Shown piece by piece: positions 28,268 to 63,555 of a stretch of DNA of 64,000 nucleotides. The notes below the pieces were generated by a model. The model worked only from the letters and a program-made list of their open reading frames with translations. It was not told the DNA's origin and ran no database searches. The stretch covers positions 682,001 through 746,000 of the forward strand of contig BQMF02000054.1 of the NCBI GenBank assembly GCA_027922465.2, written 5' to 3'. How positions within the stretch are numbered: position 1 is the first letter of the stretch; the number at the start of each line of letters is the position of its first letter. Position numbers and translations under genes: made by a program. The stretch is from Turritopsis dohrnii. Lineage: Eukaryota > Cnidaria > Hydrozoa > Anthoathecata > Oceaniidae.

Positions 28268-28279
28268 ATTCATACACTT

Positions 28280-28716
28280 AAACTGAAACCGATGTGCAGT
28301 CTAGATGATATATATTATTCAATGATATCCGCACACAATATGTACCTCTCCAATTGCAGCGCAAAGTTATCGGATCGAGTGGGACTCGAACCCACGACCT
28401 CTCGCTTGTCGGGCGATTGCTCTAACCACTAAGCTACCGACCCCTTGCGATCACACTAGTTCGTAGCAGACGAGGCGAGCGTTCAGTTACCTGACTGAAG
28501 ATGTCCAAAACCGGGGCTCTGTTGGGCGTGTTGACGCCTCTCCCCAATGTAATACACCTTCCTAGTTGCATCAAAGTTAACGAGTTGGTTGGAACTCGAA
28601 TCGCCTCTGAGCATCTATCCAATGAGATTTCACTGATTCGTAGACATTCGGGTCCAATTGAGCACAAACGCTCGCTGCAATTGGAGAGGTACATTGTGTG
28701 CGGATATCATTGAATA
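28280..28716 (-). repeat. Solo copy of the tRNA-headed hammerhead repeat, core inverted
   Basis: It is flanked by a 12-bp target duplication ATTCATACACTT (28268-28279 and 28717-28728). It starts AAACTGAAACC, the same terminus as the array at 44,988. It contains the antisense tRNA-like region (28372-28444). Unlike the array, it has a 42-44 bp inverted repeat (28316-28359 and 28675-28716). The roughly 190-base core between the tRNA-like part and the right repeat is in the opposite orientation, bounded by CGAGCGT and ACGCTCG. The hammerhead core, here on the plus strand at 28483-28512, is damaged: helix II is lost and GAAA has become AAAA. Confidence 0.75.
28372..28444 (-). promoter_or_regulatory. 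tRNA-like Pol III promoter (solo copy)
   Basis: The minus strand reads TAGCTTAGTGGTTAGAGC (A box) and GGTTCGAGTCCC (B box) within a 73-base cloverleaf-like stretch. The T arm and D arm pair well. The acceptor stem pairs poorly, so this is not a functional tRNA gene but could start Pol III transcription. Confidence 0.7.
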
Positions 28717-28728
28717 ATTCATACACTT

Positions 28729-32082: not shown

Positions 32083-37056
<4,974 letters not shown>

Positions 37057-38949: not shown

Positions 38950-39162
38950 AGACTATCATTAAGTGCATAAAAATACTGACATAAAATATACTATTCTAGT
39001 CAGTAAAAGAAGACAATTCCGGTTACAAAGTGTTGCAGTGCGAGCAGTTTGAAGCGAAAAGAACTAAAACTCTTTGGAAATCTGGATGACTGCTGAATTT
39101 AGTCGTTTTTCACATTTATGTTATTTTAAAAAAAACTTCCACACACAACTTTACGACGAGAC

Positions 39163-41403
39163 ATGGTTTCTATATGTAATCTATGTAATGGAGAATTTAA
39201 AAATCCCACTGGACTGAAGATTCACTTAACACGTGTTCACAAAAACTATGTTGCAATAGATAGAGTTATTAACGAGACATTTGAAGCAACAAACTTGACA
39301 AAACTTAATGAACAAATAGAAACTACCGCGATTGTTGACATTGACGAGGTATCCATAGAACTAGAAACCGAATCCCGAATACCGAATCTTCCGGAGTATA
39401 CAGAAGTACAACGCTACCCGACATCATCATGTTATGGTCTCGAAGGGAGAGAGTTCGTGAAAATTATCTGTGATACATACGAGGAAATTATAAGATGGAG
39501 AAAGAACTTATTCAAACTTCCCACGGGAAAAGCATCCAAGGAATTTATTAATGAACTGACGAAATGGTTAGACCATTTCAACCGGGGAAGCGAGTTTCAA
39601 GGAATAGCACTCAAAGTATACATGATCTTACCCATCCTTATACTCCAGAAACCGAGCAAAACAAGCAAGGCAAAGGACCACTGTAAGAAGGTCGAAGACA
39701 GAATGAAAATCTGGAAAGAAGGCCAGATCATTGACCTAGTCCGGGAATGCCGAACCATCCAAGCCAGACTGATTTCAAACACCCGGAGAACCAAGGACGA
39801 TCGTGCAAAAGTGTTTTCGAGACTCATCTTTCAAGGAAAGATAAAAGCCGCTTTAAAAATGCTTTCTGATGAGGATGCTGGTATAATTACCGTAGATGCA
39901 GATGTCCTAAAAGAGCTTCAAAATAAACATCCCGCAGCAGCCCATATTGAAGACGAAACTCTGCTATCTGGACCAATAGACAGCGTACTACCATCTTTTT
40001 ATGATGATATCGACGAAACAATGATCCACAAGGCGGCTAGTCTCACTAAAGGCGCTGGTGGCCCCTCTCAGTTAGATGCTGAACAATATCGCCATATTTT
40101 AACAGGAGTGAAGTACAAACGCGAGAATAAAGAACTCCGTACGCAAATAGCCACCTTAGCGAGAAAAATTGCTACTCAAGTTATTGATCCTGCCACCCTT
40201 GACGCGTTTGTTTCATGCCGACTCATTCCATTGAATAAAAATCCCGGTATTCGACCGATTGGGATTGGAGAAGTTCTGAGGAGAATAGTCGGAAAATGCA
40301 TCAACTGGGTTCTAAAAACTGAAATACAGCAAGCAGCAGGCCCATTGCAAACTGCAACTGGTATACAAGGTGGGGCTGAAGCCGCAATCCACTCTATGAG
40401 GAAGATATTCGAGGACGAAAACTCCGATGCTGTAGTTCTCGTAGACGCTAGTAATGCCTTTAATTCATTAAATAGAATGGTGGCATTGCACAATATTCGC
40501 ATCATATGCCCAGCCTTTTCCACCATACTCATTAACACCTACAGAAAGCCAGTGAGAATGATTGTACTCGGTGGTGGAGAAATCTCATCTGTTGAAGGAA
40601 CTACCCAGGGCGATAACCTGGCAATGCCATTCTACGCTCTGGGAACAAGCACGCTGCTGAGAGCACTTAAAAACGATGTACCCTCAGTGAACCAAGTGAG
40701 TCTGGCAGATGATATTACTGGTGCTGGGAAGCTACTTGAACTTAGAAAATGGTGGGATAAAATGGTTGCAGAAGGGCGCAAAGTTGGGTATTATGTAAAT
40801 GCTTCTAAAAGCTGGCTAATACTAAAAGAAAGAACTCTGCTTCAACAAGCTGAGAGAATTTTCATCGGGACAGGTGTAAAATTTACCTGCGAGGGAAAAA
40901 GACATCTTGGTGCTGCTCTCGGCAGTGACAACTTTAAAGCACAATACGTAAATGAGAAAGTAAGAGCTTGGTGTGACGAGATTGATCGACTCACCGAATA
41001 TGCACGATCACAGCCACATGCTGCATATGCTGCTTTTGTACATGGCATGCTTCACAAATTTACATTCTTCATGCGAACAATCAAGAAAATGAATGAATTT
41101 CTTCAACCACTAGACGAAAAAATCACATCTGAATTTCTTCCAGCCGTTCTTCAGAATTTTGTCACAGTACAGGAACGTGACCTATATTCACTTCCCATCC
41201 AACGAGGAGGACTCGGGATACCTATTCTATCCGATGTTTCTGAAAACCAGTATCACGGCTCTTTGAAAGTCACAGCACCACTCGTAGCCGTGATGATTCT
41301 GCAAGGCGAAGACATACCTGACAATAGCGTGGTAAGAACACTGAAATCCGAAATAGCTAAAGAGCGAGTTGATTATGTCAATGAAAAAGAGAAAGAGTCT
41401 TGA
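39163..41403 (+). CDS. LINE ORF, part 1: zinc finger and reverse transcriptase
   Basis: 746 residues. The N-terminus has a C2H2 finger (CNLCNGEFKNPTGLKIHLTR, then VH), typical of R2/NeSL-like elements, which use it for target binding. Reverse transcriptase motifs follow: RLIPLNKNPGIRPIGIGEVL, VVLVDASNAFNSLNR, EGTTQGDNLAMPFYA and SLADDITGAG, the last being this group's LADD form of the catalytic YADD box. The final residues (VNEKEKES) are out of frame with the family. The protein should continue as SLDQRTLKAVNDAREPGASN in the +1 frame at about 41,395, within an AAAAAGAGAAAGAG tract. That may be a mutation, or slippage at that tract. Confidence 0.85.
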   Translation: MVSICNLCNGEFKNPTGLKIHLTRVHKNYVAIDRVINETFEATNLTKLNEQIETTAIVDIDEVSIELETESRIPNLPEYTEVQRYPTSSCYGLEGREFVKIICDTYEEIIRWRKNLFKLPTGKASKEFINELTKWLDHFNRGSEFQGIALKVYMILPILILQKPSKTSKAKDHCKKVEDRMKIWKEGQIIDLVRECRTIQARLISNTRRTKDDRAKVFSRLIFQGKIKAALKMLSDEDAGIITVDADVLKELQNKHPAAAHIEDETLLSGPIDSVLPSFYDDIDETMIHKAASLTKGAGGPSQLDAEQYRHILTGVKYKRENKELRTQIATLARKIATQVIDPATLDAFVSCRLIPLNKNPGIRPIGIGEVLRRIVGKCINWVLKTEIQQAAGPLQTATGIQGGAEAAIHSMRKIFEDENSDAVVLVDASNAFNSLNRMVALHNIRIICPAFSTILINTYRKPVRMIVLGGGEISSVEGTTQGDNLAMPFYALGTSTLLRALKNDVPSVNQVSLADDITGAGKLLELRKWWDKMVAEGRKVGYYVNASKSWLILKERTLLQQAERIFIGTGVKFTCEGKRHLGAALGSDNFKAQYVNEKVRAWCDEIDRLTEYARSQPHAAYAAFVHGMLHKFTFFMRTIKKMNEFLQPLDEKITSEFLPAVLQNFVTVQERDLYSLPIQRGGLGIPILSDVSENQYHGSLKVTAPLVAVMILQGEDIPDNSVVRTLKSEIAKERVDYVNEKEKES

Positions 41404-42199
41404 TCAACGGACATTGAAAGCCGTTAACGATGCAAGAGAGCCAGGCGCGTCAAACTGGCTTTCGGCTCTTCCGTTAGAAGAATATGGCTTTGTCCTGAAC
41501 AAATCCGAGTTCAGGGATGCCATTGCTTTACGGTATGGACAAGAACTGAAAGGCCTATCTTCGAAATGTCCCTGTGATCAACCATATAGTGTAACGCATG
41601 CCTTGAACTGCAAAACTGGAGGATTTGTCACAATACGACACAATAATGTCCGAGATTTTGAATCTCAATTGCTAAAAATCATTTGCAATGACGTAGAAAC
41701 CGAGCCTCAACTCCAGCCCATTGACGGTGAAACTGTGGAAGGACTGACAGGAGATAACGCGAAACCAGACGTACGTGCAAGAGGATTCTGGCGGGATGGT
41801 CAGAATGCCTTTTTTGACGTTAGAATTACGAACACTAACGCTAGCAGTCAAGCACATATGACCACAGAGAAGATATTCAGAAAACACGAAGCAGAGAAGA
41901 AGAGGCAATACAATCGAAGGATCATGAACATTGAGCACGGCTCTTTTACTCCATTAGTTTACTCGGTTAACGGGGGTATGGCCAAAGAGTGTTCGATGTT
42001 TCACAAACACCTTGCAGAAAGAATTGCTAGTAAAACAGGATGCCGATATGCAAAAGTCCTCTCCTTCATCAAATGCAAGCTCTCGTTCCTGATTCTGCGC
42101 TCCTCCCTTATGTGTGTTAGAGGCAGTCGTTCCATTACCAAACATACGGGCAAGAATGTCGAGGAATTTGATATTGTTCATGATAGCGTGCTGTCATGA
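41369..42199 (+). CDS. LINE ORF, part 2: CCHC finger and restriction-like endonuclease
   Basis: It overlaps part 1 by 35 bases in the +1 frame. It starts at a codon in the slippery tract rather than at a likely true initiator. CPCDQPYSVTHALNC is the C-x-C...H-x4-C finger that precedes the endonuclease in R2-group LINEs. KPDVRARGFW and NAFFDVRI supply the PD...D core of a PD-(D/E)XK nuclease, which nicks the target for target-primed reverse transcription. The C-terminus reads LRSSLMCVRGSR as in related animal elements. Apart from the frame break both parts look intact. Confidence 0.8.
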   Translation: MIMSMKKRKSLDQRTLKAVNDAREPGASNWLSALPLEEYGFVLNKSEFRDAIALRYGQELKGLSSKCPCDQPYSVTHALNCKTGGFVTIRHNNVRDFESQLLKIICNDVETEPQLQPIDGETVEGLTGDNAKPDVRARGFWRDGQNAFFDVRITNTNASSQAHMTTEKIFRKHEAEKKRQYNRRIMNIEHGSFTPLVYSVNGGMAKECSMFHKHLAERIASKTGCRYAKVLSFIKCKLSFLILRSSLMCVRGSRSITKHTGKNVEEFDIVHDSVLS

Positions 42200-42858: not shown

Positions 42859-44773
42859 GACCTGAACATGTAATTATACACGTCATTATGATTAGCCTTA
42901 AGCGTACTAATTTTCGCGTGCGCAATTATTCGCGAGATTAAAAATACATGCGAAATATCAGGTTTGAGCAGATACGCGAAAATCGATAAAATTGAAATGC
43001 AATTTTTTTGGACTAGCGAAAATAAATCCACATGAAAATTAGAGTACGCTTAAAGTGAATATGAGTGTGTTGTTATCGATGCAAAATGAAGTGATCATGA
43101 CAAAACTGAACAAAACTAAACATATTTTTATTCGCTTGAGTTTCTTGTATCATTTCTTAAGGCCCTAGTTAGACGGTAAATGCTAAACTATTATTCCGTA
43201 AGCTATTCAAAAATTATTCAAAGAACGAAAAAAGTAGTTTAATTTAGCTTCGAATAAAATCAAATCGTTTTGATTTTATTCCGAATAATAATATAGCGAA
43301 GTTCAAAGAATGCCGACATTTAAATAATCGAACACATGTGTTGCACAAACCCAACACTCGAACGCTGTGTTGCACAGCTAAATGTAAATGCGACGGTTGT
43401 AGAACAAACTTTTCCCTTAAACGCCAGATGATTGCCCCTTAATAAATTGGCCCCCAGAGCATGAAAAATTGCCAGTTCAATCTTAATTCTTGTAGAGTCA
43501 TTGTGCTCCATTGTCACGCTCTCTTTATTAAAATTTCTTCAACTACTTCTTCCATCATGTTTAATGACGACAGGGCCTTTTTTCCCATGCCTTTATCATA
43601 TTGAGTCTATCGAGTGAGGAGACCACAAAGCGAACGAGGACTCTGGGAGATACCATGGACGTCATCGCCGAAATCGCTGTTCCACCGAGTACTCATCGAA
43701 AAGAGAGCAAAAATTGGAATCAATCAAACTATCGGTTGAGGAAGGGGATGATAGCGTTACTCTAAACCGCATCAGCAAACTTTCAACTACTTTTTGGACG
43801 GTTCGTGCGAACTACTTCCAAAGGATTCTTGAAAGCTACTATTCTTTGTATGAGCTTATGGAATAACTGTCTTGAAGAAACTGGTCTCACAAGAGAAGTT
43901 AAGTCAAGGATAATCGGGTGCAAAGCATAGATGAAATGTTTTGACTATTACTTTCGCTTAAAGGCTTTTGTATTCTCATGGATAAACTGTCGCAAATATT
44001 CAGCACGAAAAGATGTCAGTAGTAAGCGCATAGCCATGTTAGAAACCATTAGAAATACCTTATCGGAGAAAAAAATCGCGGAAAAGTGACCAATTTACCG
44101 ACTTTTTTTTCTCCGATAATATGCGAAACGAGGAGTCTTTTAATGCGTTCTGATCTAGCCTTGAAAGAAACCAAGAAAATCTCGTTTATTGGAGAACCGC
44201 TTTTGGAAAGAAAATAAAAAAATGCCAAAATATTCACTGCTAACATTATGTTGAATACCAAAGAACTCACCAGCCCATCTGTCCCACTAATCGTCACCAG
44301 TAAGACAATAGGATGTCTTTACTTTCTTCAGTGACCGATTCGACCAACCTTCGATTCTAGTATTCGAAAAATGTGTACACTTTTTACCCATTAAAATATT
44401 TTTTTGAATACTTAAATAATTAGAAACTATGGTTGTGTTTTAGCCAATCTAGAAAACCGAAATTTCAAAAATTTTCTTGTCCGTCCGCCCCAGCCATGTT
44501 GGAGGCGGACGGACATGGTTAGACACTAAATCATCAGCCCCACCACCTTTAATTTGCTCTGCCGCCCCTGAATGAATGAATGGACATATATTCCATAACT
44601 TAACGAATTAATTGATTAGTTTATCAGTGTAATTTCAACATAAAGCTAAACAAGATAACCTACGGGCAGAAAAATTTCTGCAAAATCTGTTGAAGCATGT
44701 TATGACATTTATGAAATTCGACAAAAAAATGTCGATCTAAGTGGGTTCGAACCAGATGGCCAGATGGCGCAAA
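42859..44773. other. Spacer, no gene assigned
   Basis: AT-rich. A strong hairpin (GTCCGTCCGCC ... GGCGGACGGAC) lies at about 44,483-44,515. Between 43,560 and 43,900 there is more GC-rich, possibly once-coding sequence, but no frame or motif is recognisable. Confidence 0.35.
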
Positions 44774-44987
44774 ACGGTAACAGCAAAAGTACTTGCCACA
44801 AGAATACTTTCTAAATTTTACTTAAAGTTCTTAAAAGTTCTTTAAACGTTATTTCTTGAAATATCTTACTGGTGGAAAACAGGCATAAACGATAATAATG
44901 TTTAAAATTACTAACTCGTGTAAATAGGGTCTAATTGTAGCACTTTAATTTATTAGACAAAAGAATTATACATGCATGAGCTGTTTA
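44774..44987. repeat. ACGGTA-repeat copy 3, left part (host of nested insertions)
   Basis: It matches 35,738-35,960 nearly base for base. It stops at the 12-bp duplication ATGAGCTGTTTA (44976-44987), resumes after the array (46026-46078), stops again at the big transposon and resumes at 57,565. This continuity dates the array and the transposon as later insertions into one older repeat. Confidence 0.8.
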
Positions 44988-45073
44988 CTGAAACCAATGT
45001 GCTATATCGATATATACATTAATTAATGATAACCGCACATAATGTACCTTTCCAATTGCAGCGCAAAGTTATC

Positions 45074-45146
45074 GGATCGAGTGGGACTCGAACCCACGAC
45101 CTCTCGCTTGCTGGGCGATTGCTCTAACCACTAAGCTACCGACCCC
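45074..45146 (-). promoter_or_regulatory. tRNA-like Pol III promoter, array unit 1
   Basis: A box TAGCTTAGTGGTTAGAGC and B box GGTTCGAGTCCC on the minus strand. The anticodon-position triplet is AGC. The acceptor stem is poor. Confidence 0.7.
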
Positions 45147-45332
45147 TTGCGATCACACTAGTTCGTAGCAGACGAGGGGAGTATGGCCGCTCAATTGAAC
45201 CTGAATGCCTACGAATCAGTGGAATCTCATTGGATAGATGCTCAGAGGTGATTCAAGTTCCAACCAACTCGTTAACTTTGATGCAACTAGGAAGGTGTAG
45301 TACATTGGGGAGAGGCATTCGCCCAACAGAGC

Positions 45333-45380
45333 CCCGGTTTCGGACATAGTCCATCCTCAGTCAGTTAACTGAAACCAATG
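45333..45380 (-). ncRNA. Predicted hammerhead ribozyme, type-III topology, junction 1
   Basis: Read on the minus strand: helix III 5' strand UUGGU with cleavage triplet GUU; helix I TCAG-TTAA-CTGA; conserved box CTGAGGA (matches CUGANGA); a single U; helix II GGAC-TAT-GTCC; then GAAA; and helix III 3' strand ACCGG (three Watson-Crick and two G-U pairs). The order of parts is that of viroid and plant-retrozyme hammerheads. Helix I is short and the U before helix II is unusual. Cleavage is predicted between 45,373 and 45,372. Confidence 0.55.
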
Positions 45381-45454
45381 TGCTATATCGATATATACAT
45401 TAATTAATGATAACCGCACATAATGTACCTTTCCAATTGCAGCGCAAAGTTATC

Positions 45455-45527
45455 GGATCGAGTGGGACTCGAACCCACGACCTCTCGCTTGCCGGGCGAT
45501 TGCTCTAACCACTAAGCTACCGACCCC
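45455..45527 (-). promoter_or_regulatory. tRNA-like Pol III promoter, array unit 2
   Basis: Same A and B boxes as unit 1; the anticodon-position triplet is GGC. Transcription would run from here through the unit towards lower coordinates and across the hammerhead at 45,380-45,333. Confidence 0.7.
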
Positions 45528-45713
45528 TTGCGATCACACTAGTTCGTAGCAGACGAGGGGAGTATGGCCGCTCAATTGAACCTGAATGCCTACGAATCAG
45601 TGGAATCTCATTGGATAGATGCTCAGAGGTGATTCAAGTTCCAACCAACTCGTTAACTTTGATGCAACTAGGAAGGTGTAGTACATTGGGGAGAGGCATT
45701 CGCCCAACAGAGC

Positions 45714-45761
45714 CCCGGTTTCGGACATAGTCCATCCTCAGTCAGTTAACTGAAACCAATG
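45714..45761 (-). ncRNA. Predicted hammerhead ribozyme, type-III topology, junction 2
   Basis: Identical in sequence to junction 1, exactly 381 bases away. Cleavage at both sites would release a unit-length RNA with ends suited to circularisation. Confidence 0.55.
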
Positions 45762-45835
45762 TGCTATATCGATATATACATTAATTAATGATAACCGCAC
45801 ATAATGTACCTTTCCAATTGCAGCGCAAAGTTATC

Positions 45836-45908
45836 GGATCGAGTGGGACTCGAACCCACGACCTCTCGCTTGCCGGGCGATTGCTCTAACCACTAAGCTA
45901 CCGACCCC
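45836..45908 (-). promoter_or_regulatory. tRNA-like Pol III promoter, array unit 3
   Basis: Same boxes and GGC triplet as unit 2. Downstream of it both hammerheads would be transcribed in one RNA. Confidence 0.7.
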
Positions 45909-46856
45909 TTGCGATCACACTAGTTCGTAGCAGACGAGGGGAGTATGGCCGCTCAATTGAACCTGAATGCCTGAATGCCTACGCTTATTTAAAACTTACT
46001 TAAATCTTCGTGGGAGTAAAATTTCATGAGCTGTTTATAACGTACGTTTTTTTTATAAGAGCTTATGTAGAAAAAAAAACTCGTTTCTTCGAAAAACACA
46101 TGTATATATGTAGACAGGCAGCTGATGGCCAAAAAATGTTGGAAATGTCTGGGACAAACCCGATTTACTGTAAGACCATCATTTTCATCCTTGGAAACAA
46201 GAATCTGAAACCCGATTTTCGAAATTTTCTTTAAGGCGGATTTTAGCGTCACTCCATAGGACGAAAAAATTTTTACTCAAAATTTAAGATTGTTATATAT
46301 CAATCGATAGATTTTTTGATACTGATTAAACTTTCATAAAAAAACATTAAAGTCAAAATTTATGTATCAAAAGTATCAAGCTCCAAAGTTTGAATATTGA
46401 CGTCATCAAACCATTAGTATAATCGCTTACCGCACAACATAATTGGAAGTTTTCAATGAAAACGCTTATTTAAAACTTACTTAAATCTTCGTGGGAGTAA
46501 AATTTCATGGATACTATGTAAAGAATGGGCTTTTTATGCATTGTTTACGAAGTATTCTAGTGAAAAATCCTTGAAATTGCTAAGTTTTTCCAAATAATAA
46601 TATATCGTTATAGAAAGAATATCTTGAAAATTTCAAAAACCACGGAAACCGTAAACGCAGAAATCATAATTTACAAGCTTTCAAAGTTGCTGTTAAGATA
46701 TCATTTTTCAGGAAAAAATTGTAAATTGTCAAAATATTTAAGATTACAACACTGCGCGTTAAGGGTCTGAATACGGCACGGAATTTTTGGATATTTTTCG
46801 CGCAGTGCAAGTTGTAGATCTAAAAAAATAAACACATAACTGAAAACAATCATGCT

Positions 46857-47585
46857 TTAGTCAATCTCGTCATCGCTATCACTATCATTCTCATCGCCAG
46901 AGCTTTCGTAATTCGCTTCCTCATCGTCATCTTCATCATCAATTCCGTCCTTTTGGTTTACACAATCTTTGCATGACCAAAGATCAGTGCAAGGTAACCC
47001 ATGAACAGGCGAGGGTGAGGCATCCTTTTTTGCAATTAAAAGTTATTGTATGTAAAAATTGCTCAGGGGCTGGAGGTAGTAACATCCATCGAATTTCAAG
47101 ATTGCCATCCTCATCAAGTAACCATCCATAGCCATCTTGGGGATCGGGTACGTCTGGAAAGCTTTCCAACGAGCCTTTCACCACAGCATTAACATACGCA
47201 ACCCTTTTGCAATGTTATAAAAGAACATCTTTTGTCGGAGGGAGCTTCTGTGGCTCGGAGGCTTTCTCACTGCTGCAGAATTTATAATATCTGGCCTCGT
47301 TAACATCGGAGCACTGTTTGGCACCTTATAGATCGCATACAAACTTTTCGATGCTGTTAAAGGACCCCAAATCGAAGATAAAGGATTTACCCAAACGCAT
47401 TCAAATACTCATCTTACTTGAGCATTGTCTTATACGCCTTAACCTTGCCTAAACCATGAAAGGCACTCGTGTAATCGTTTCCTGTAAAGTCGTGCATAAA
47501 GGAAAGGGCCTTGCAACAGTCAACTCCACGTTCTCTAGAAATTTTTGTCTAAATGTCTAAAACTAGTCGTTTGTTGCCTGCAACA
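46857..47585 (-). pseudogene. Decayed XPG-transposon C-terminus, left arm
   Basis: From about 47,530 down the minus strand: DCCKALSFMHDFTGNDY and SAFHGLGKVKAYK, then CSDVNEARYYKFCSSEKAS, LESFPDVPDPQDGYGWLLDE, LPPAPEQFL, CKKGCLTLACS, LPCTDLWSCKDCVNQ and an acidic tail ending in TAA at 46857-46859. FTGNDYTSAF corresponds to FTGCDYTASF in the 1,218-residue protein, so the two are related families. Stops and shifts occur throughout. Confidence 0.7.
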
Positions 47586-47688
47586 AACATTTGTGCATGT
47601 TGTTAATTAAGCCATTGAACAGTTTTACCCAGATGGAAATGAAGAAAGAGATTGGAAACAAAACTACGAGACAAATTTACAAAATTAC

Positions 47689-47889
47689 ATGGAACGAACA
47701 GGGTTTTACACCTCAAAAAGTGTTTTTACACTAATCACAGGTGATGATGATAGGTGCAATGCAAATGTTATTAGTGACATTTCCAGTGATTCTGATGCTG
47801 ACGATCTAATGGATGGTGTAAGTGATGACTTGATAAACTCAACACCAAACATTTGGAAAAAAGGAAAACTGATAATCAACCAGAATTGA
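47689..47889 (+). pseudogene. Acidic unassigned frame in left arm (twin at 49,135-49,279 minus)
   Basis: It starts MERTGFYTSKSVF and is rich in Asp and Ser (VISDISSDSDADDLMD). The first 48 residues recur in the right arm on the other strand; after the arm ends, the two continuations differ. It could be the start of a second transposon gene. No domain is recognised. Confidence 0.35.
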
Positions 47890-49134
47890 TCGAATTTTCT
47901 GAAACCGTTCTGCAATTTGATAATTTCCATAGGTTCAAGCCTGAGACATTTCGTGAAGGCATAGAAATGCATATTGCTTTATTAACTACCATTGAAAAGT
48001 ATTCATGGCTTTTCAATTAGAATAAAGTCTATTTCGTTAAGTCAGATCAATTTTCCTATACCTTTCGGTCAAAAGTATAACTCACAGTCAGACTTTTCTG
48101 TAGTTCTAACTTCAAACATTCGAATGTTCGAAAAATGTTTATATAACTGAAGATTAAAGTTTATTTATATGGTATTTAAATGGCGTCAAAAGGAGGTAAA
48201 TGAGGTATTGAAAAATACAAGATTTGAAAACTGATCTAATGCTACGAGAACCAACCATGCGTTTGATTTCACCTTTCACAGTTTTAAAGGATATTTCTGA
48301 TTGACACTATCTATTTCTGACACAGGTTTCATTATGGAATACATTGCTCTTGGCATAAGAGAAGCGCGCAGAATAGTCGATGATAGCGAGCACTGTAATG
48401 CCACACAAGAGCGCGCACTAAAAGGGAAGCGCGCAGTGTTTCTTGAAGTGCGCGCAGTTCGATCCTCCTGGGCCATCGTACATTGATGGGAAGAAATACC
48501 CCGTGGGGTTGCTTTCCGCATCCCACTCGGCATCTTCCAAAAATATTTCCCGCCAAGATGATGTTTTCGTATATTTATAATGATATTTTGCTTTTTATTT
48601 GAAATTTTGCTATACGGGAACTGCTATACGGGGTAATACGGGGTAAAAGTTTTATTTTTTCACACTTTTATTGAAAAGAGGCAAATGAATTCAGTCTGAC
48701 TTTTTAAATATCATTTTATTTCAAACGTTAGTTAGTTATATGTAAATCAATTTTAAAAGAATTGCGTAGAATTAAGTGTATTTTTTTGTTTATTACCCCC
48801 GTCTTTAAATACTGTAGAAGGAAATGTTTTGAAATTCGAATTCGAAAATAAAAGCTTCTATGATGTAAAGATGGTGTACATGAAGTGAGGAATGACGAGT
48901 AAAACTTGACATTGCTTTTTTGTTATATTTTGATCCTTAAAGAAAATTTGGATAATCGGGTTTTGGTTTTGGTTTATATTAAGTAGATGGCTCATGAATT
49001 TTGTATTTTCAAATTGTCCCTAGAGTTTGCATTGTTTCCATTTTTTTTGGTCATCAGCTGCCTGTCTAATATTTTTGGAAGATGCCGAGTGGGATGCGGA
49101 AAGCAACCCCACGGGGTATTTCTTCCCATCAATG
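47890..49134. other. Unique loop of the 4.1 kb element
   Basis: No gene. At 48,365-48,460 GCGCGC-rich words repeat (AAGCGCGCAG, GAGCGCGCAC). At about 49,043-49,065 there is a lone copy of the big transposon's terminus, CATCAGCTGCCTGTCTA, with no partner. This suggests a third related element contributed the loop. Confidence 0.5.
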
Positions 49135-49384
49135 TCAAGTCATCACTTACACCATCCATTAGATCGTCAGCATCAGAATCACTGGAAATGTCACTAATAA
49201 CATTTGCATTGCACCTATCATCATCACCTGTGATTAGTGTAAAAACACTTTTTGAGGTGTAAAACCCTGTTCGTTCCATGTAATTTTGTAAATTTGTCTC
49301 GTAGTTTTGTTTCCAATCTCTTTCTTCATTTCCATCTGGGTAAAACTGTTCAATGGCTTAATTAACAACATGCACAAATGTTTG

Positions 49385-50109
49385 TTGCAGGCAACAAACG
49401 ACTAGTTTTAGACATTTAGACAAAAATTTCTAGAGAACGTGGAGTTGACTGTTGCAAGGCCCTTTCCTTTATGCACGACTTTACAGGAAACGATTACACG
49501 AGTGCCTTTCATGGTTTAGGCAAGGTTAAGGCGTATAAGACAATGCTCAAGTAAGATGAGTATTTGAATGCGTTTGGGTAAATCCTTTATCTTCGATTTG
49601 GGGTCCTTTAACAGCATCGAAAAGTTTGTATGCGATCTATAAGGTGCCAAACAGTGCTCCGATGTTAACGAGGCCAGATATTATAAATTCTGCAGCAGTG
49701 AGAAAGCCTCCGAGCCACAGAAGCTCCCTCCGACAAAAGATGTTCTTTTATAACATTGCAAAAGGGTTGCGTATGTTAATGCTGTGGTGAAAGGCTCGTT
49801 GGAAAGCTTTCCAGACGTACCCGATCCCCAAGATGGCTATGGATGGTTACTTGATGAGGATGGCAATCTTGAAATTCGATGGATGTTACTACCTCCAGCC
49901 CCTGAGCAATTTTTACATTCAATAACTTTTAATTGCAAAAAAGGATGCCTCACCCTCGCCTGTTCGCCTTACCTTGCACTGATCTTTGGTCATGCAAAGA
50001 TTGTGTAAACCAAAAGGACGGAATTGATGATGAAGATGACGATGAGGAAGCGAATTACGAAAGCTCTGGCGATGAGAATGATAGTGATAGCGATGACGAG
50101 ATTGACTAA
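49385..50109 (+). pseudogene. Decayed XPG-transposon C-terminus, right arm
   Basis: The inverted twin of 46857-47585, almost identical, with the same disabling stops. It differs near the Cys-rich end, where it reads ACSPYLA rather than ACSWVTL. The open frame 49784-50008 is one piece of it. Its stop TAA is at 50107-50109. Confidence 0.7.
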
Positions 50110-50697
50110 AGCATGATTGTTTTCAGTTATGTGTTTATTTTTTTAGATCTACAACTTGCACTGCGCGAAAAATATCCAAAAATTCCGTGCCGTATTCAGA
50201 CCCTTAACGCGCAGTGTTGTAATCTTAAATATTTTGACAATTTACAATTTTTTCCTGAAAAATGATATCTTAACAGCAACTTTGAAAGCTTGTAAATTAT
50301 GATTTCTGCGTTTACGGTTTCCGTGGTTTTTGAAATTTTCAAGATATTCTTTCTATAACGATATATTATTATTTGGAAAAACTTAGCAATTTCAAGGATT
50401 TTTCACTAGAATACTTCGTAAACAATGCATAAAAAGCCCATTCTTTACATAGTATCCATGAAATTTTACTCCCACGAAGATTTAAGTAAGTTTTAAATAA
50501 GCGTTTTCATTGAAAACTTCCAAATATGTTGTAGTCCAGGAGCTCTCAACATGTCTATCTACCTCATTTTCCTCAGAATTTTAACCCATCTAGCGGCAAT
50601 AGGTATTTATTGAATAGCGTAAAACGCTCGGTCAGACGCGATATTAGCGGTTCCTTCAGGTTCCAGGACCAAAACAAGTCAGGTAAAAAGGGACGTT

Positions 50698-51335
50698 TAT
50701 CTACCTCATAAGCCTCAGACTTGAAACTTGGGATATATATAACTAAAACTAAAAAGTACATGAAAATAATAAATCTGACCAAAATTTCTGGTTCTGGGAC
50801 CAAACTGACCTAAATTTATTGATGCGAAAAAAGGACTTTATCTACCTCATAAGCCTCAGATCTGAAATTTTGCCCAAATCTTAACAATGTATCAGGCATA
50901 CTTAAAATCATAAATCTGACCAAAATTTCAGGTTCCTTCCGAGGATCTGACCCCAAAATAATACAGGGCCAAATAGGTATTTTATCTACCTCATAAGCCT
51001 CAGATTTGAAATTTTGCCCAAGTCTTGACAATGTATCAGGCATACCTAAAATCATAAATCTGACCAAAATTTCCGGTTCCTTCCAAGGATCTGACCCCAA
51101 AAATGGTGCGGGGCAAAAGGTTACTTTGTCTACCTCATAAGCCTCAGATCTTAAATTTTGCCCAAGTCTTAACAATGTATCAGGCATACCTAAAATCATA
51201 AATTTCCGGTTCCTTTCAAGAATCTGACTCCAAAAATGTTCATTTATAATTAAAAAGGGATTCTGTCTACCTCATAAGCCTCAAATGTTCATTAATAATT
51301 AAAAAGGGATTCTGACTACCTCATAAGCCTCATGG
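50698..51335. repeat. Subterminal ~143-bp tandem repeats, left TIR
   Basis: CTACCTCATAAGCCTCA recurs at 50701, 50842, 50986, 51130, 51267 and 51316. Spacing is about 141-144 bases, then shorter at the inner end. Each unit also has TCTGACCAAAATTTC. The right TIR has only three units (around 56,745, 56,890 and 57,030, opposite strand), so the two TIRs differ in copy number. Confidence 0.85.
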
Positions 51336-56589: not shown

Positions 56590-57564
56590 TTGATGTTTGA
56601 GAAAGAAGAAGGGGTTAAATCCAGCCCTTTTTGCCCCGTACCTTTTTTGGGGTCAGATCCTTGGAAGGAACCGGAAATTTTGGTCAGATTTATGATTTTA
56701 AGTATGCCTGATACATTGTCAAGACTTGGGCAAAATTTCAAATCTGAGGCTTATGAGGTAGATAAAATACCTATTTGGCCCTGTATTATTTTGGGGTCAG
56801 ATCCTCGGAAGGAACCTGAAATTTTGGTCAGATTTATGATTTTAAGTATGCCTGATACATTGTTAAGATTTGGGCAAAATTTCAGATCTGAGGCTTATGA
56901 GGTAGATAAAGTCCTTTTTTCGCATCAATAAATTTAGGTCAGTTTGGTCCCAGAACCAGAAATTTTGGTCAGATTTATTATTTTCATGTACTTTTTAGTT
57001 TTAGTTATATATATCCCAAGTTTCAAGTCTGAGGCTTATGAGGTAGATAAACGTCCCTTTTTACCTGACTTGTTTTGGTCCTGGAACCTGAAGGAACCGC
57101 TAATATCGCGTCTGACCGAGCGTTTTACGCTATTCAATAAATACCTATTGCCGCTAAATGGGTTAAAATTCTGAGGAAAATGAGGTAGATAGACATGTTG
57201 AGAGCTCCTGGACTATTGTGCGGTAAGCGATTATACTAATGGTTTGATGACGTCAATATTCAAACTTTGGAGCTTGATACTTTTGATACATAAATTTTGA
57301 CTTTAATGTTTTTTTATGAAAGTTTAATCAGTATCAAAAAATCTATCGATTGATATATAACAATCTTAAATTTTGAGTAAAAATTTTTTCGTCCTATGGA
57401 GTGACGTCATCAGAACCTAAAATTGACCCTAAAATCCGCCTTAAAGAAAATTTCGAAAATCGGGTTTCAGATTCTTGTTTCCAAGGATGAAAATGATGGT
57501 CTTACAGTAAATCGGGTTTGTCCCAGACATTTCCAACATTTTTTGGCCATCAGCTGCCTGTCTA
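56590..57564. repeat. Right terminal inverted repeat of the large transposon
   Basis: It is the uninterrupted counterpart of 46111-46437 plus 50532-51230, including three 143-bp subterminal units. The open frames across it (56539-56931 and 56944-57174) are translations of these repeats, not genes. Confidence 0.85.
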
Positions 57565-57858: not shown

Positions 57859-58358
57859 TTCTACCTTAATTAGCTCTTTTGACTCTTCTGTTTACAAAAC
57901 GTTGAGAACTTCTTTTTAGTTAGAAAAGAATGATCACAGTCCAAGATAATTATAAGTTTCTTCTATATATTTTCTGTTTTCACCTTAAAATATGTATATC
58001 TTCTTTAAAATCCATTTAATAGTGATCAAAGAAACTTTTGTAAATCTTTCGCTGACATGCAATGCACGGTGCTTTGGTTTCATGTAAATGCACGCACGAA
58101 ATTTCAAAAAACCGCTAGGTTTGGACAGTATGAAAAAGAAAAACCAAAGCCGGTTGTAAGGTATTTCTTGCTTTCGCAGAAATCCAATTATTTGAATAAT
58201 TTTCTGTGTCTATTTTTAGGAATAGTTTACTGTGTAACAGGGCCTTTAATTTCATGGAAAACATCAGTGTTTTATCAACTAAGGTCATCTAAAAAAAGTT
58301 GAATTTTAGAAAAAAATTAATCGTTGGATCTTTTTATTTCGACTGCCGTTCGATATTT
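57859..58358. other. Spacer, no gene seen
   Basis: An 81-codon plus-strand frame at 58,057 has no recognisable domain. Otherwise AT-rich. Confidence 0.35.
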
Positions 58359-58640
58359 GGCGGGAGTTTTCGATCCTTTTTTTTTGAGCTATTTATAGAT
58401 GAAACATTTTCGCGGGAGTTTTCGATCCTTTTTTTGAGCTATTTATAAATCGAACATTTTGGCGGGAGTTTTCGATCCTTTTCTTGAGCTATTTATAAAT
58501 CGAACATTTTGGCGGGAGTTTTCGATCCTTTTCTTGAGCTATTTATAAATCGAACATTTTGGCGGGAGTTTTCGATCCTTTTCTTGAGCTATTTATAAAT
58601 CGAACATTTTGGCGGGAGTTTTCGATCCTTTTTTCAAATC
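58359..58640. repeat. 50-bp minisatellite, about 5.5 copies
   Basis: GGCGGGAGTTTTCGATCC recurs at 58359, about 58411, 58461, 58511, 58561 and 58611. The last four intervals are exactly 50 bases and almost identical; the first two copies are diverged. Each unit has a TTTATAAATCGAA segment. It is contiguous, so it is not a spacer-repeat array. Confidence 0.95.
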
Positions 58641-61165: not shown

Positions 61166-61228
61166 CCAACATTTAAACCAACATTTTATTAGTTTCATTC
61201 ATTCTCTTTCTCGTCACAATTTTTCAAA

Positions 61229-62485
61229 ATGGCTGAAAGGGAAGCCGCAGCATTTATTTTGTTGACTTTGGCTATAGATGAAGATGATGAGAAAAAGAGT
61301 CGGGGTCCTACGAGAAAATGGATACAGCGGAGGAATCAGGATGGCATGTATAATAATCTTGTTCAGGAGCTCTTAATCGAAGATACAAAATCTTATAAGG
61401 AAATGATGAGAATGGATTATAGTTGTTTCAAGGTAATCCTACAGTTGATTGAGCCCTATATTGCTCCAAAAAGTTCGGGAGTTTCAGGACAGCGTGTTGT
61501 CTCACCTGCTGAAAGGCTAGTTTTGACCATTCGGTTTCTTGCAACAGGTGAAAGCTTCAGATCATTATGTTATCAATTCCGTGTATCAGAAAGGGCAATA
61601 TCATATATAGTTGATACAACAGCAAAAGCAATTGTAGCATACATTGGTAAAGATTATATAAAACTTCCTTCTTCTTCTGAATGGATGAACATTTCTGAAA
61701 CGTTTGAATCGCGGTGGAACTTTCCTAATTGTCTTGGGGCAATCGATGGCAAACATATACAAATAAGACCACCTCCTGGTACTGGGTCAGAATACTACAA
61801 TTACAAGAAAACATTTTCTATAATTCTATTAGCCATTGCTGGGCCAAATTACGAATGTATCTATGCAGATATAGGTAGCAATGGGCGTATGAATGATTCA
61901 GGCGTTTGGAATGCATCTGATCTGCGGAAAAAAGTTGAAGACGGTGATTTAGGAATTCCTGAAGCCAAAGTGTTGCCTTTTGGGTGGACGAAAGTACCTC
62001 ATGTTTTTGTTGGAGACGATGCATTTGCGTTGAAACCATATATGATGAAACCTTATCCACAGAAAGAGCTGACAGAAGATAAACGCATCTACAATTATCG
62101 CCATAGCCGAGCTCGTAGAATCTCAGAAAACCTTTTTGGTATTATGGCTAATAAATGGCGTATTTTTCAACAACCTTTAAATTTATCGCCAGAAAAAGCT
62201 CGTACAATAACATCATGTGCTTTGGTGCTGCATAACTTTCTCCGGATAAATAGTAAATCTGTGTACACACCACCTGGTTTAATTGATTATGTTGATAGAA
62301 ATGGTCAATTAGTTCCAGGATCCTGGCGATCTGAGCAAGTAAATCCGCTTGGGGTATTTTCTACATCTTTTCCAAAACAGACAGGAAAAAATGCATCAAG
62401 AAATGCTAAGGTGATCAGAGAAATTTTTACAGAATATTTCATGAGCGAAGGAGGAAGTGTCAATTGGCAATGGGAACGGTCATGA
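61229..62485 (+). CDS. Harbinger transposase (HARBI1-like, DDE)
   Basis: 418 residues. The catalytic domain has GAIDGKHIQI (Asp at about 173), YADIGSNGRMNDSG (about 214), VGDDAF (about 264) and RHSRARRISENLFGI (Glu at about 300), the DDE_Tnp_4 layout. An N-terminal helical region (about 90-140: AERLVLTIRFLATGESFRSL) is the helix-turn-helix seen in this family. The length fits HARBI1 and active Harbinger transposases. There are no stops or shifts. In known systems this protein needs the Myb/MADF partner for nuclear import and DNA binding; that partner lies at the other end of the element. Confidence 0.93.
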   Translation: MAEREAAAFILLTLAIDEDDEKKSRGPTRKWIQRRNQDGMYNNLVQELLIEDTKSYKEMMRMDYSCFKVILQLIEPYIAPKSSGVSGQRVVSPAERLVLTIRFLATGESFRSLCYQFRVSERAISYIVDTTAKAIVAYIGKDYIKLPSSSEWMNISETFESRWNFPNCLGAIDGKHIQIRPPPGTGSEYYNYKKTFSIILLAIAGPNYECIYADIGSNGRMNDSGVWNASDLRKKVEDGDLGIPEAKVLPFGWTKVPHVFVGDDAFALKPYMMKPYPQKELTEDKRIYNYRHSRARRISENLFGIMANKWRIFQQPLNLSPEKARTITSCALVLHNFLRINSKSVYTPPGLIDYVDRNGQLVPGSWRSEQVNPLGVFSTSFPKQTGKNASRNAKVIREIFTEYFMSEGGSVNWQWERS

Positions 62486-62614
62486 AAAACACTATAAACT
62501 AAAAGTTAACTACATTTTATTCTTTGAAAAGTTTAATAACAAAAACATAAAATGTAAACAATATTATGTAAAATATACTATAAACTATATTATAAGTTAC
62601 ATAATAAAAACGTG

Positions 62615-63436
62615 TCAATTATTATAATCTTGAAGCATTGAAGTATATTGACCCTGGGTTACATCATAAGGGTTAATTGGGGCTGGGGACAGAGCGTGTC
62701 GAGAATGTACAAATTGGTTGTTTTTTGAATAGTGAGCAGCACCAGAACCAAACTCTTGCATTTTTATTTCAAATATGATATCGTTGATTCTTTTTTCTGC
62801 AATACAACGACTCTTGTTGTCCAAGGTTTTCAGTTGCTCTGACACGTATAGAGCGAATGGATCCTCAAGTAATGGGCGTTTTGGGCTTTGGGGCTTATCC
62901 AACACATCAATACACTTTGCAATTAACTTTTGCTTTTGTTTCTGTCTTTCTTCAGCAGGAGTGATACATCTTTTCCTGCTGACTTGTTTTTGTGAATTAG
63001 CCTCCATTTCGATAGAGTCATCCATCAGATCTTCAGTATCACTTTCGTCGTTGACCATCATCGACTGTGATTCAAAGTTTATTGTTGATAAACTCTTGGC
63101 TGTTTTCTTTACTTGATCCACGAACTTCATTTTTTGCATGAATTGCCAGGAACTCTCGAATAATTCGTCAGTACTTTGGCCACTCTTTGTTTTGTTTTCC
63201 TTAGAAAGCTCTCTACCAAATTGGGCTCGTAATGATTTCCACTTAGCTTGTATGGTTTTTAGATCCATATCCATAGCTTCTTTAATTTCAGACAAAGCCT
63301 TCTCTTTTTTATCTCTTTTTGAATAGCTTTTGTCGGAAATGTCCCATAGACAAGGTCTTTCCTCATACAAGTCAATGAGTTTTTCCACTGACTCATCGTC
63401 CCACTTAAATTTATTACGTTGCGAAGCTTCATCCAT
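62615..63436 (-). CDS. MADF-BESS DNA-binding protein of the Harbinger element
   Basis: 273 residues. The N-terminal 16-105 region is a MADF (Myb/SANT-like) domain: ESVEKLIDLYEERPCLWD, IQAKWKSLRAQFGREL and WQFMQKMKFV. An acidic linker follows, then PFALYVSEQLKTLDNKSRC at about 195-225, resembling a BESS motif. It is the usual second gene of PIF/Harbinger elements, binding subterminal sites and recruiting the transposase. It is intact. Its start lies about 120 bases from the palindrome-rich right end, so it is probably transcribed from within that region. Confidence 0.88.
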   Translation of the reverse strand: MDEASQRNKFKWDDESVEKLIDLYEERPCLWDISDKSYSKRDKKEKALSEIKEAMDMDLKTIQAKWKSLRAQFGRELSKENKTKSGQSTDELFESSWQFMQKMKFVDQVKKTAKSLSTINFESQSMMVNDESDTEDLMDDSIEMEANSQKQVSRKRCITPAEERQKQKQKLIAKCIDVLDKPQSPKRPLLEDPFALYVSEQLKTLDNKSRCIAEKRINDIIFEIKMQEFGSGAAHYSKNNQFVHSRHALSPAPINPYDVTQGQYTSMLQDYNN

Positions 63437-63555
63437 TTTAATGAAATTATTGAACTTTCTTGTTTGGATTTTCTTTTGATATTTTTTTCATACAGGTCCG
63501 ATGGGATTAAAAACATTCGAAAAGTATAAAAAACATTCGAAAAGACATCATAATA

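What the first reader, a model, noticed from the sequence alone, without database searches (positions are those of the whole stretch)
44988..46025. Tandem 381-bp units combining a tRNA-like Pol III promoter with a type-III-topology hammerhead ribozyme
Seen: an exact 381-base period and, on the minus strand at each complete unit junction, the ordered parts of a hammerhead: GUU site, helix I TCAG/CTGA, CTGAGGA, helix II GGAC/GTCC, GAAA, helix III GGU/ACC. Seen: A and B boxes in every unit on the same strand, and a 12-bp target duplication around the array. The array edge lies four bases from the predicted cut. Known: retrozymes and schistosome Sm-alpha repeats are tandem, ribozyme-bearing, circular-RNA-producing elements, but most metazoan hammerheads have type I topology. 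Inference: this is a Pol III-driven animal retrozyme with viroid-like hammerhead order. Weak points are the 4-bp helix I and one extra U before helix II.
Basis: partly seen in the sequence, partly recalled or inferred. Interest (0 to 1): 0.88.

Follow-up and report, generated by a model that had tools for sequence, protein, structure and literature searches.

The report
Mobile tRNA-like repeat with possible ribozyme
A recently inserted run of nearly identical 381-base repeats in what looks like a jellyfish- or hydra-like animal genome carries a tRNA-type promoter and a plausible self-cutting RNA motif, so it looks like a mobile element copied through multi-unit or circular RNA, with an arrangement of the cutter unusual for animals.

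Summary
44988-45972 is a 381-bp tandem array (2.6 copies). Each unit has a tRNA cloverleaf with A and B boxes on the minus strand. Both complete junctions hold, on that strand, all hammerhead core boxes in type III order (helices I/II/III of 4/4/3 bp, GUU site, one extra U); chance expectation per unit is about 1e-4, or 2e-3 with laxer rules. A paralogous empty site (35955-35967) shows that 44988-46024 entered as one block with a 13-bp (not 12-bp) duplication. A diverged second copy lies at 28281-28718.

Best reading: a non-autonomous, Pol III-type retrozyme like the schistosome tRNA/hammerhead repeats, but with type III order. Reverse transcription started in the helix-I hairpin, 4-6 nt past the predicted cut, on RNA that was circular or longer than one unit.

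Against activity: no Rfam hammerhead hit; the hammerhead fold lies 4.4 kcal/mol above the minimum; its loops are shorter than usual for type III; copy 2 has lost helix II and G12 while its tRNA is preserved. The host genome could not be searched and cleavage is untested.

The parts
44988..46024 (-). Whole inserted block: 2.6 tandem 381-bp units, a short 8-bp step back of unit sequence, and 44 bp shared with another element at its 5' (minus-sense) end
   Evidence: empty site at 35955-35967
44975..44987 (.). 13-bp target-site duplication, left copy CATGAGCTGTTTA
46025..46037 (.). 13-bp target-site duplication, right copy
35955..35967 (+). Paralogous empty target site (single CATGAGCTGTTTA) inside a repeat whose flanks match both sides of the array (35723-35967 = 44759-44987, 88.6%; 35955-36009 = 46025-46079, 100%)
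45373..45753 (-). Predicted 381-nt monomer that the two complete hammerheads would release (cuts 45754/45753 and 45373/45372)
   Evidence: sequence; inference
45334..45378 (-). Hammerhead-like motif at the unit 2/unit 1 junction: UUGGU-U^UCAG(UUAA)CUGA-CUGAGGA-u-GGAC(UAU)GUCC-GAA-ACCGG
45715..45759 (-). The same motif at the unit 3/unit 2 junction
45073..45145 (-). tRNA cloverleaf of unit 1 (anticodon AGC)
45454..45526 (-). tRNA cloverleaf of unit 2 (anticodon GGC); A box 45519-45509, B box 45475-45465
45835..45907 (-). tRNA cloverleaf of unit 3 (anticodon GGC); its promoter lies upstream of both complete hammerheads
44959..44962 (-). TTTT in the minus sense, 26 bp beyond the array: first possible Pol III terminator after the promoters; none in the unit itself
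45981..46024 (+). Filler identical to 46462-46505 and to 50504-50461 (48/48 with the shared CATG), joined by ACG and CATG microhomologies; read as a template switch or templated repair insertion
28281..28718 (.). Second, rearranged copy (about 8-9% diverged): minus 28479-28281 holds the tRNA side and 3' edge, plus 28482-28663 the hammerhead side (helix II deleted, G12 to A), plus 28673-28718 a third piece
28371..28443 (-). tRNA cloverleaf of the second copy (anticodon GAC)
28268..28279 (.). 12-bp target-site duplication of copy 2, left (ATTCATACACTT); right copy at 28717-28728

Best explanation
The array is a recent insertion of a non-autonomous, tRNA-promoter retrozyme. RNA polymerase III starts at the A/B boxes of an upstream unit and reads through whole units, because the unit has no T4 stop. 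The hammerhead at each junction is meant to cut the transcript into 381-nt monomers, alone or more probably as a pair joined through the palindromic helix I (UCAGUUAACUGA), and a host ligase may close them into circles. A helper reverse transcriptase, plausibly of the Penelope-like or another target-priming kind, nicks an AT-rich site and starts copying inside the helix-I hairpin (UUAA loop), just past the cut. It copies more than one round of a circular or multi-unit template, so the insert is a tandem array with a fixed 3' edge and a ragged 5' side. Shown: array, tRNA, insertion as one block, the same 3' edge in two separate insertions. Strongly implied by the anatomy: a template longer than a unit or circular. 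Inferred: Pol III transcription, cleavage, circles, identity of the helper.
For: Tandem units nearly identical. Full tRNA with A/B boxes in every unit. No TTTT in the unit, and a TTTT 26 bp after the array. Insertion proven by an empty paralogous site with a 13-bp duplication. Two separate insertions have their 3' edge in the same hairpin (GGTTTCAG, then T or TT), 4 and 6 nt past the predicted cut, and truncated or rearranged 5' sides. All hammerhead core boxes are present in order on the strand of the promoter, with expectation 1.3e-4 to 2.1e-3 per unit and no other hit in the window. In copy 2 one helix III pair goes from U.G to C-G, keeping the pair (by eye, sequences). The hammerhead-side piece of copy 2 starts at TTCAG, 1 nt from the predicted 5' product end UCAG. 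The double hammerhead is at -26.0 kcal/mol against -22.4 for two monomers at their minimum. The whole monomer is more stable than its shuffles (z -3.18). Size, tandem form and long duplications fit published animal retrozymes (PMC7229834, parts 1-4 of 6 read; PMC4918200, passages). A Penelope-like RT starts internally in an RNA stem-loop at AT-rich DNA (PMC11167929, section 3 part 1 and passages).
Against: No Rfam hammerhead match at E<=10 even for the 56-nt core. The 45-nt hammerhead fold is -6.8 against a minimum of -11.2 kcal/mol, the minimum keeping helices II and III but tying up the CUGA box in a shifted 6-bp helix I. The 56-nt core is hardly more stable than its shuffles (z -1.34, 19 of 200 shuffles fold as well) and its minimum is not the hammerhead; in the monomer minimum the 3' end pairs elsewhere than in helix III. 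The double hammerhead is still 4 kcal/mol above the dimer minimum of -30.0. Helix I (4 bp, 4-nt loop) and loop II (3 nt) are shorter than the 6 bp, 6-8-nt and 4-nt loops usual for type III (PMC7936874, passages), so the loop-loop contact is doubtful. An extra U follows A9. Copy 2 lacks helix II and G12, yet its tRNA side has 2 differences in the first 131 columns, which suggests that the loss was inherited and that copy 2 moved without a working hammerhead; if so, its TTCAG edge was not made by self-cutting either. No further copies could be examined.
Confidence: 0.58

Rival explanations
1. A tRNA-derived SINE that inserts as head-to-tail multimers by target-primed reverse transcription, with no working ribozyme. 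The hairpin at the 3' edge is a start signal for the helper reverse transcriptase, and the hammerhead resemblance is chance or a dead relic.
For: No Rfam hit; weak fold; copy 2 seems to have moved with a core lacking helix II and G12 while the tRNA is preserved; the 3' edge lies past, not at, the predicted cut.
Against: Expectation of the full ordered motif 1.3e-4 to 2.1e-3 per unit; it sits at the element's edge and on the promoter strand; tandem multimers with long duplications are typical of ribozyme-bearing animal repeats (PMC7229834, parts read).
Confidence: 0.3
2. Ordinary tandem duplication of a single inserted SINE (unequal crossing-over), not multimeric reverse transcription.
For: Units are nearly identical, as after recent duplication.
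Against: The block between the duplications ends inside a unit at the 5' side and at the shared edge at the 3' side. A single truncated insert of about 0.6 unit has no internal repeat to expand from, so at least 1.6 units should have come in together (inference).
Confidence: 0.06
3. A cluster of true tRNA genes or a satellite array.
For: Cloverleaves score 58.6-61 bits.
Against: Anticodons differ (AGC, GGC, GAC) in an otherwise identical tRNA; position 33 is C (by eye); a mobile insertion with duplications, and a second dispersed copy.
Confidence: 0.02
4. A short non-autonomous LTR element with a Pol III promoter in its repeats (TRIMp3: Helenus, Ajax, Cassandra).
For: These carry promoters derived from small RNA genes and can form tandem arrays (PMC10886601, passages).
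Against: Duplications of 13 and 12 bp, where plant LTR retrozymes have 4 bp (PMC4918200, passages); 5' truncation and rearrangement. Primer-binding site and polypurine tract were not searched for.
Confidence: 0.03

Closest known systems
Schistosome Sm-alpha / Sj-alpha SINE-like hammerhead repeats
   Same: Tandem hammerhead repeats with a full tRNA sequence (PMC4918200, passages) and A and B boxes (PMC2576457, passages); called SINE-like in a title seen in a reference list
   Different: Their hammerhead is type I and shown active (PMC6155905, passages); here the order is type III, helices are shorter, there is a bulged U, and activity is untested. No sequence comparison was made.
Metazoan non-LTR retrozymes (coral, mussel, axolotl, Nematostella)
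   Same: 150-450-bp tandem repeats, target-site duplications longer than 4 bp (15 bp in Nematostella), self-paired RNA, cnidarian hosts included (PMC7229834, parts 1-4; PMC4918200, passages)
   Different: Those described in the parts read carry type I hammerheads, and a tRNA is mentioned only for schistosomes (PMC4918200, passages). GC of this unit is 47.5%: within 'below 50%' of the text, above the 'below 45%' of its figure 1
Plant LTR retrozymes (type III hammerheads)
   Same: Type III order of the hammerhead
   Different: 600-1000-bp spacing, LTRs, primer-binding site and 4-bp duplications (PMC7761336 and PMC4918200, passages), against a 381-bp unit and 13/12-bp duplications here
Type III hammerheads in animals: HDV-like RNAs of toad and termite, motifs in termite and fly genomes
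   Same: Type III order in animal material (PMC7936874, passages)
   Different: Those have longer helices with a pseudoknot, the termite genomic ones are isolated motifs, and the passages seen report no tandem tRNA-promoter element. PMC7761336 (passages) alludes to elements with type III hammerheads in insects, unpublished then.
Penelope-like elements
   Same: Tandem organisation, hammerheads, AT-rich targets, reverse transcription starting inside an RNA stem-loop (PMC11167929, section 3 part 1 and passages)
   Different: They encode a protein; this unit has no long reading frame and its helper is unknown

Membership tests
Hammerhead ribozyme, type III | Core boxes CUGANGA, GAAA and NUH with three helices in the order III-I-II | tested here: met
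   (with one extra U allowed after CUGANGA)
Hammerhead ribozyme, type III | Match to a curated covariance model (Rfam Hammerhead families) | tested here: not met
   none at E<=10
Hammerhead ribozyme, type III | Helix I about 6 bp with a 6-8-nt loop contacting loop II | tested here: not met
   4 bp and 4-nt loop; loop II 3 nt; yardstick from PMC7936874, passages
Hammerhead ribozyme, type III | Core conserved or covarying across copies | tested here: inconclusive
   One diverged copy only: helices I and III and CUGANGA kept, helix II and G12 lost
Hammerhead ribozyme, type III | Self-cleavage at the NUH site | not testable with these tools
   needs in vitro transcription
Metazoan non-LTR retrozyme | Non-coding tandem repeats of about 150-450 bp | tested here: met
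   381 bp, 2.6 copies; no stop-to-stop frame of 120 aa or more overlaps the array
Metazoan non-LTR retrozyme | Non-LTR insertion with long target-site duplications | tested here: met
   13 bp with empty site; 12 bp for copy 2
Metazoan non-LTR retrozyme | Type I hammerhead | tested here: not met
   only type III order found
Metazoan non-LTR retrozyme | Linear and circular monomer RNA in tissue | not testable with these tools
   no RNA data available
tRNA-derived SINE | Internal Pol III promoter in a tRNA-related region, target-site duplications | tested here: met
   (sequence only; transcription not tested)
tRNA-derived SINE | Dispersed copies in the host genome | tested here: inconclusive
   one further copy in 64 kb; genome search did not complete
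Plant-type LTR retrozyme / TRIMp3 | LTR integration with a short duplication (4 bp in plant retrozymes) | tested here: not met
   13 and 12 bp

The most novel reading that the evidence does not exclude
An animal, probably cnidarian, retrozyme that joins a complete tRNA Pol III promoter to a type-III-order hammerhead. It works as a pair through a self-complementary helix I and is re-inserted as multimers by a reverse transcriptase that starts inside that same hairpin, so cleavage signal and copying-start signal are one structure.
Probability: 0.38. Interest if true: 0.75.

Novelty: new variant of a known kind. Interest (0 to 1): 0.56.

Why it matters
The animal retrozymes described in the parts I read carry type I hammerheads, type III being typical of plants and their circular RNA agents (PMC7229834, parts 1-4; PMC7761336, passages). 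A Pol III-driven animal retrozyme with type III order would show that the order is not tied to kingdom, would give a minimal system for testing whether circles or multimers are the reverse-transcription template, and would link tRNA SINEs with retrozymes. If the hammerhead proves inactive, the locus is still a clean case of a SINE inserted as a multimer, with an empty site and a patched 5' end.

Tried and rejected
Rfam at loose thresholds for any other ribozyme or RNA: over the tRNA, tRNA itself plus sub-threshold Plastid-ycf2, Plastid-psbl-rps4 and mascRNA matches; in the flanks three sub-threshold matches; at gathering score in the whole window 4 tRNAs only. Exact-pattern scans for relatives: viral contigs 4 scans and genome contigs 1 scan, 0 matches each; these collections are not animal genomes, so absence says little. 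blastn against phages: 285 records, none covering 80% of the query; the 20 rows listed fall at query positions 220-306, the tRNA part, and I take the unlisted 265 to be of the same kind. A protein search with the ankyrin frame to place the host: 18 candidates, none at E<=0.001. Idea dropped as needless: that the anticodon difference between unit 1 (AGC) and units 2 and 3 (GGC) records A-to-inosine editing; by eye it is a C-to-T at a CpG on the plus strand, copy 2 having C there. Type I reading: the descriptor finds none. Local folds of six pieces gave no notable stability (z -1.49 to 0.88).

Full report
OBSERVATION. The window holds a 381-bp tandem array at 44983-45972, 2.6 copies at 99%. Units 1 and 2 differ at one base of 381 (45112) and partial unit 3 matches unit 2 up to 45972. 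On the minus strand each unit has a full tRNA cloverleaf (3 of 3 units by ARAGORN and by Rfam, 58.6-61 bits) with canonical A and B boxes (box consensus recalled; the loose A-box pattern has one further match in the unit). At the two complete junctions the minus strand reads UUGGU-U^UCAG-UUAA-CUGA-CUGAGGA-u-GGAC-UAU-GUCC-GAA-ACCGG. That is helix III, GUU, helix I, CUGANGA, an extra U, helix II and GAAA: type III order. A descriptor (helices at least 4/4/3, 0-1 bulge, loops 3-40, types I and III) finds 2 hits on both strands of the 64 kb, exactly these junctions, against an expectation of 0.02 per type, estimated from 2 hits of each type in 12 Mb of simulated sequence. For one unit, both strands, the expectation is 1.3e-4 (2 hits in 12 Mb), or 2.1e-3 with laxer settings (33 hits in 12 Mb).

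INSERTION. CATGAGCTGTTTA flanks the block at 44975-44987 and 46025-46037 and occurs once more on the plus strand, at 35955-35967. There the left flank of the array (44759-44987) matches 35723-35967 at 88.6% and the right flank (46025-46079) matches 35955-36009 at 100%: a paralogous empty site. So 44988-46024 came in as one block with a 13-bp duplication. At its right end the unit sequence steps back by 8 bp (CTGAATGC twice, by eye), and 45981-46024 is a copy of 46462-46505 (48/48 including the shared CATG; also 50504-50457 inverted), joined through ACG and CATG microhomologies. I read this as a template switch or templated repair at the 5' side.

SECOND COPY. 28281-28718 is a diverged, rearranged copy: minus 28479-28281 (92.0% over 199 columns), plus 28482-28663 (91.4% over the 163 columns from 28501), plus 28673-28718 (89.1% over 46), with a 12-bp duplication at 28268-28279 and 28717-28728; no empty site was found for it. 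Its 3' edge is in the same place (GGTTTCAGTT). The hammerhead-side piece begins at TTCAG (28482), 1 nt from the predicted 5' product end. Flanking 9-base inverted stretches (by eye) suggest that the middle was flipped; put back by eye, copy 2 would be one whole unit bounded by TTCAG on both sides plus a 46-nt inverted piece, as in twin priming (inference; twin priming recalled). Its core keeps CUGANGA, helix I and helix III (one U.G pair becomes C-G) but has a 7-nt deletion in helix II, and GAAA became AAAA. The tRNA side shows 2 differences in the first 131 of 199 columns and 14 in the other 68. The loss of helix II may therefore be inherited rather than decay after insertion. That counts against the hammerhead being needed, and against reading copy 2's TTCAG edge as a self-cut end.

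MECHANISM. Two separate insertions share a 3' edge 4 and 6 nt past the predicted cut, within the helix-I hairpin. The copied RNA therefore ran across the cut site: it was a circle, an uncut multimer, or a partly cut transcript. At least 1.6 units should have been copied at once to give the array (inference). Starting inside an RNA hairpin at AT-rich DNA is what was found for a Penelope-like enzyme (PMC11167929, section 3 part 1 and passages). The unit has no TTTT on the sense strand, and the first TTTT after the array is at 44962-44959, so Pol III could read from the unit 3 promoter through both hammerheads; the TTTT rule is recalled. As a single strand the hammerhead is weak: -6.8 against -11.2 kcal/mol for the 45-nt junction, whose minimum keeps helices II and III but shifts helix I into the CUGA box. 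The 56-nt core is not clearly more stable than its shuffles (z -1.34, 19 of 200), though the 381-nt monomer is (z -3.18). Because helix I with its loop is a 12-nt palindrome, two junctions can pair into a double hammerhead (-26.0; two monomers at their minimum -22.4; dimer minimum -30.0). The palindrome alone proves little: the window has 47 perfect 12-nt palindromes. Dimeric action is known for amphibian type I hammerheads with short helix III (PMC7229834, part 3). An extra residue in the core has precedent in a chrysanthemum viroid hammerhead (PMC3705267, passages; its exact position is recalled).

COMPARISON. Animal retrozymes are tandem, 150-450 bp, low-GC, with duplications longer than 4 bp and type I hammerheads (PMC7229834, parts 1-4 of 6; its methods searched type I and type III motifs). 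Schistosome repeats hold a full tRNA and A/B boxes (PMC4918200, PMC2576457; passages), and Nematostella repeats have 15-bp duplications (PMC4918200, passages). Type III in animals is reported for HDV-like RNAs and for motifs in termite and fly genomes (PMC7936874, passages), and PMC7761336 (passages) alludes to unpublished elements with type III hammerheads in insects, which may narrow the novelty. In nine literature searches (listings, plus passages of some papers) I saw no animal tandem retroelement with type III order; the library lacks most subscription journals, so this is weak evidence of novelty.

HOST. Among the best 120 rows listed of 212 hits, the top named relative of the 1,224-aa frame is Hydractinia (52% over 77%); the other named ones are mostly insects at about 41% or less. 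For the transposase at 61193, 7 of the 120 rows listed (of 2,319) carry an organism name and 5 of these are cnidarian: Rhopilema twice, Actinostola, Montipora, Clytia. A cnidarian is likely but not shown; transposons can cross species.

VERDICT. The element, its promoter sequence and its mode of insertion are solid. The hammerhead is a good candidate with real weaknesses. Probability that the motif is a true hammerhead by descent about 0.7, that it is active about 0.5; both are judgement.

Noticed in passing
46434-50532: 4.1-kb element with 1.4-kb inverted ends (46434-47833 and 50532-49135, 99.6%), apparently inserted within another repeat that is uninterrupted at about 57216.
   Followed up: partly
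50835-51203 and 56645-56910: 144-bp-period repeats flanking the 1,224-aa frame 55339-51665 (DUF6589, 26.4 bits, just under the cut-off of 27); the two regions match each other in inverted orientation (50532-51118 and 57215-56629, 99.3%), so this may be a transposon with repeat-rich ends.
   Followed up: no
39130-42199: Reverse transcriptase frame (757 aa; RVT_1 28.4 bits, just under the cut-off of 29.6) followed by an overlapping second frame of 280 aa with no Pfam match; looks like a non-LTR element with a frameshift.
   Followed up: no
61193-63487: DDE_Tnp_4 transposase frame (430 aa) with an oppositely oriented MADF/Myb-like frame beside it, the usual pair of a Harbinger-type transposon (label recalled).
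   Followed up: partly
58356-58632: 50-bp tandem repeat, 5.5 copies at 96%.
   Followed up: no
36802-37056: Fragment of an ADP-ribosylation-factor gene, a possible host gene (Pfam Arf, 6.3e-10).
   Followed up: no
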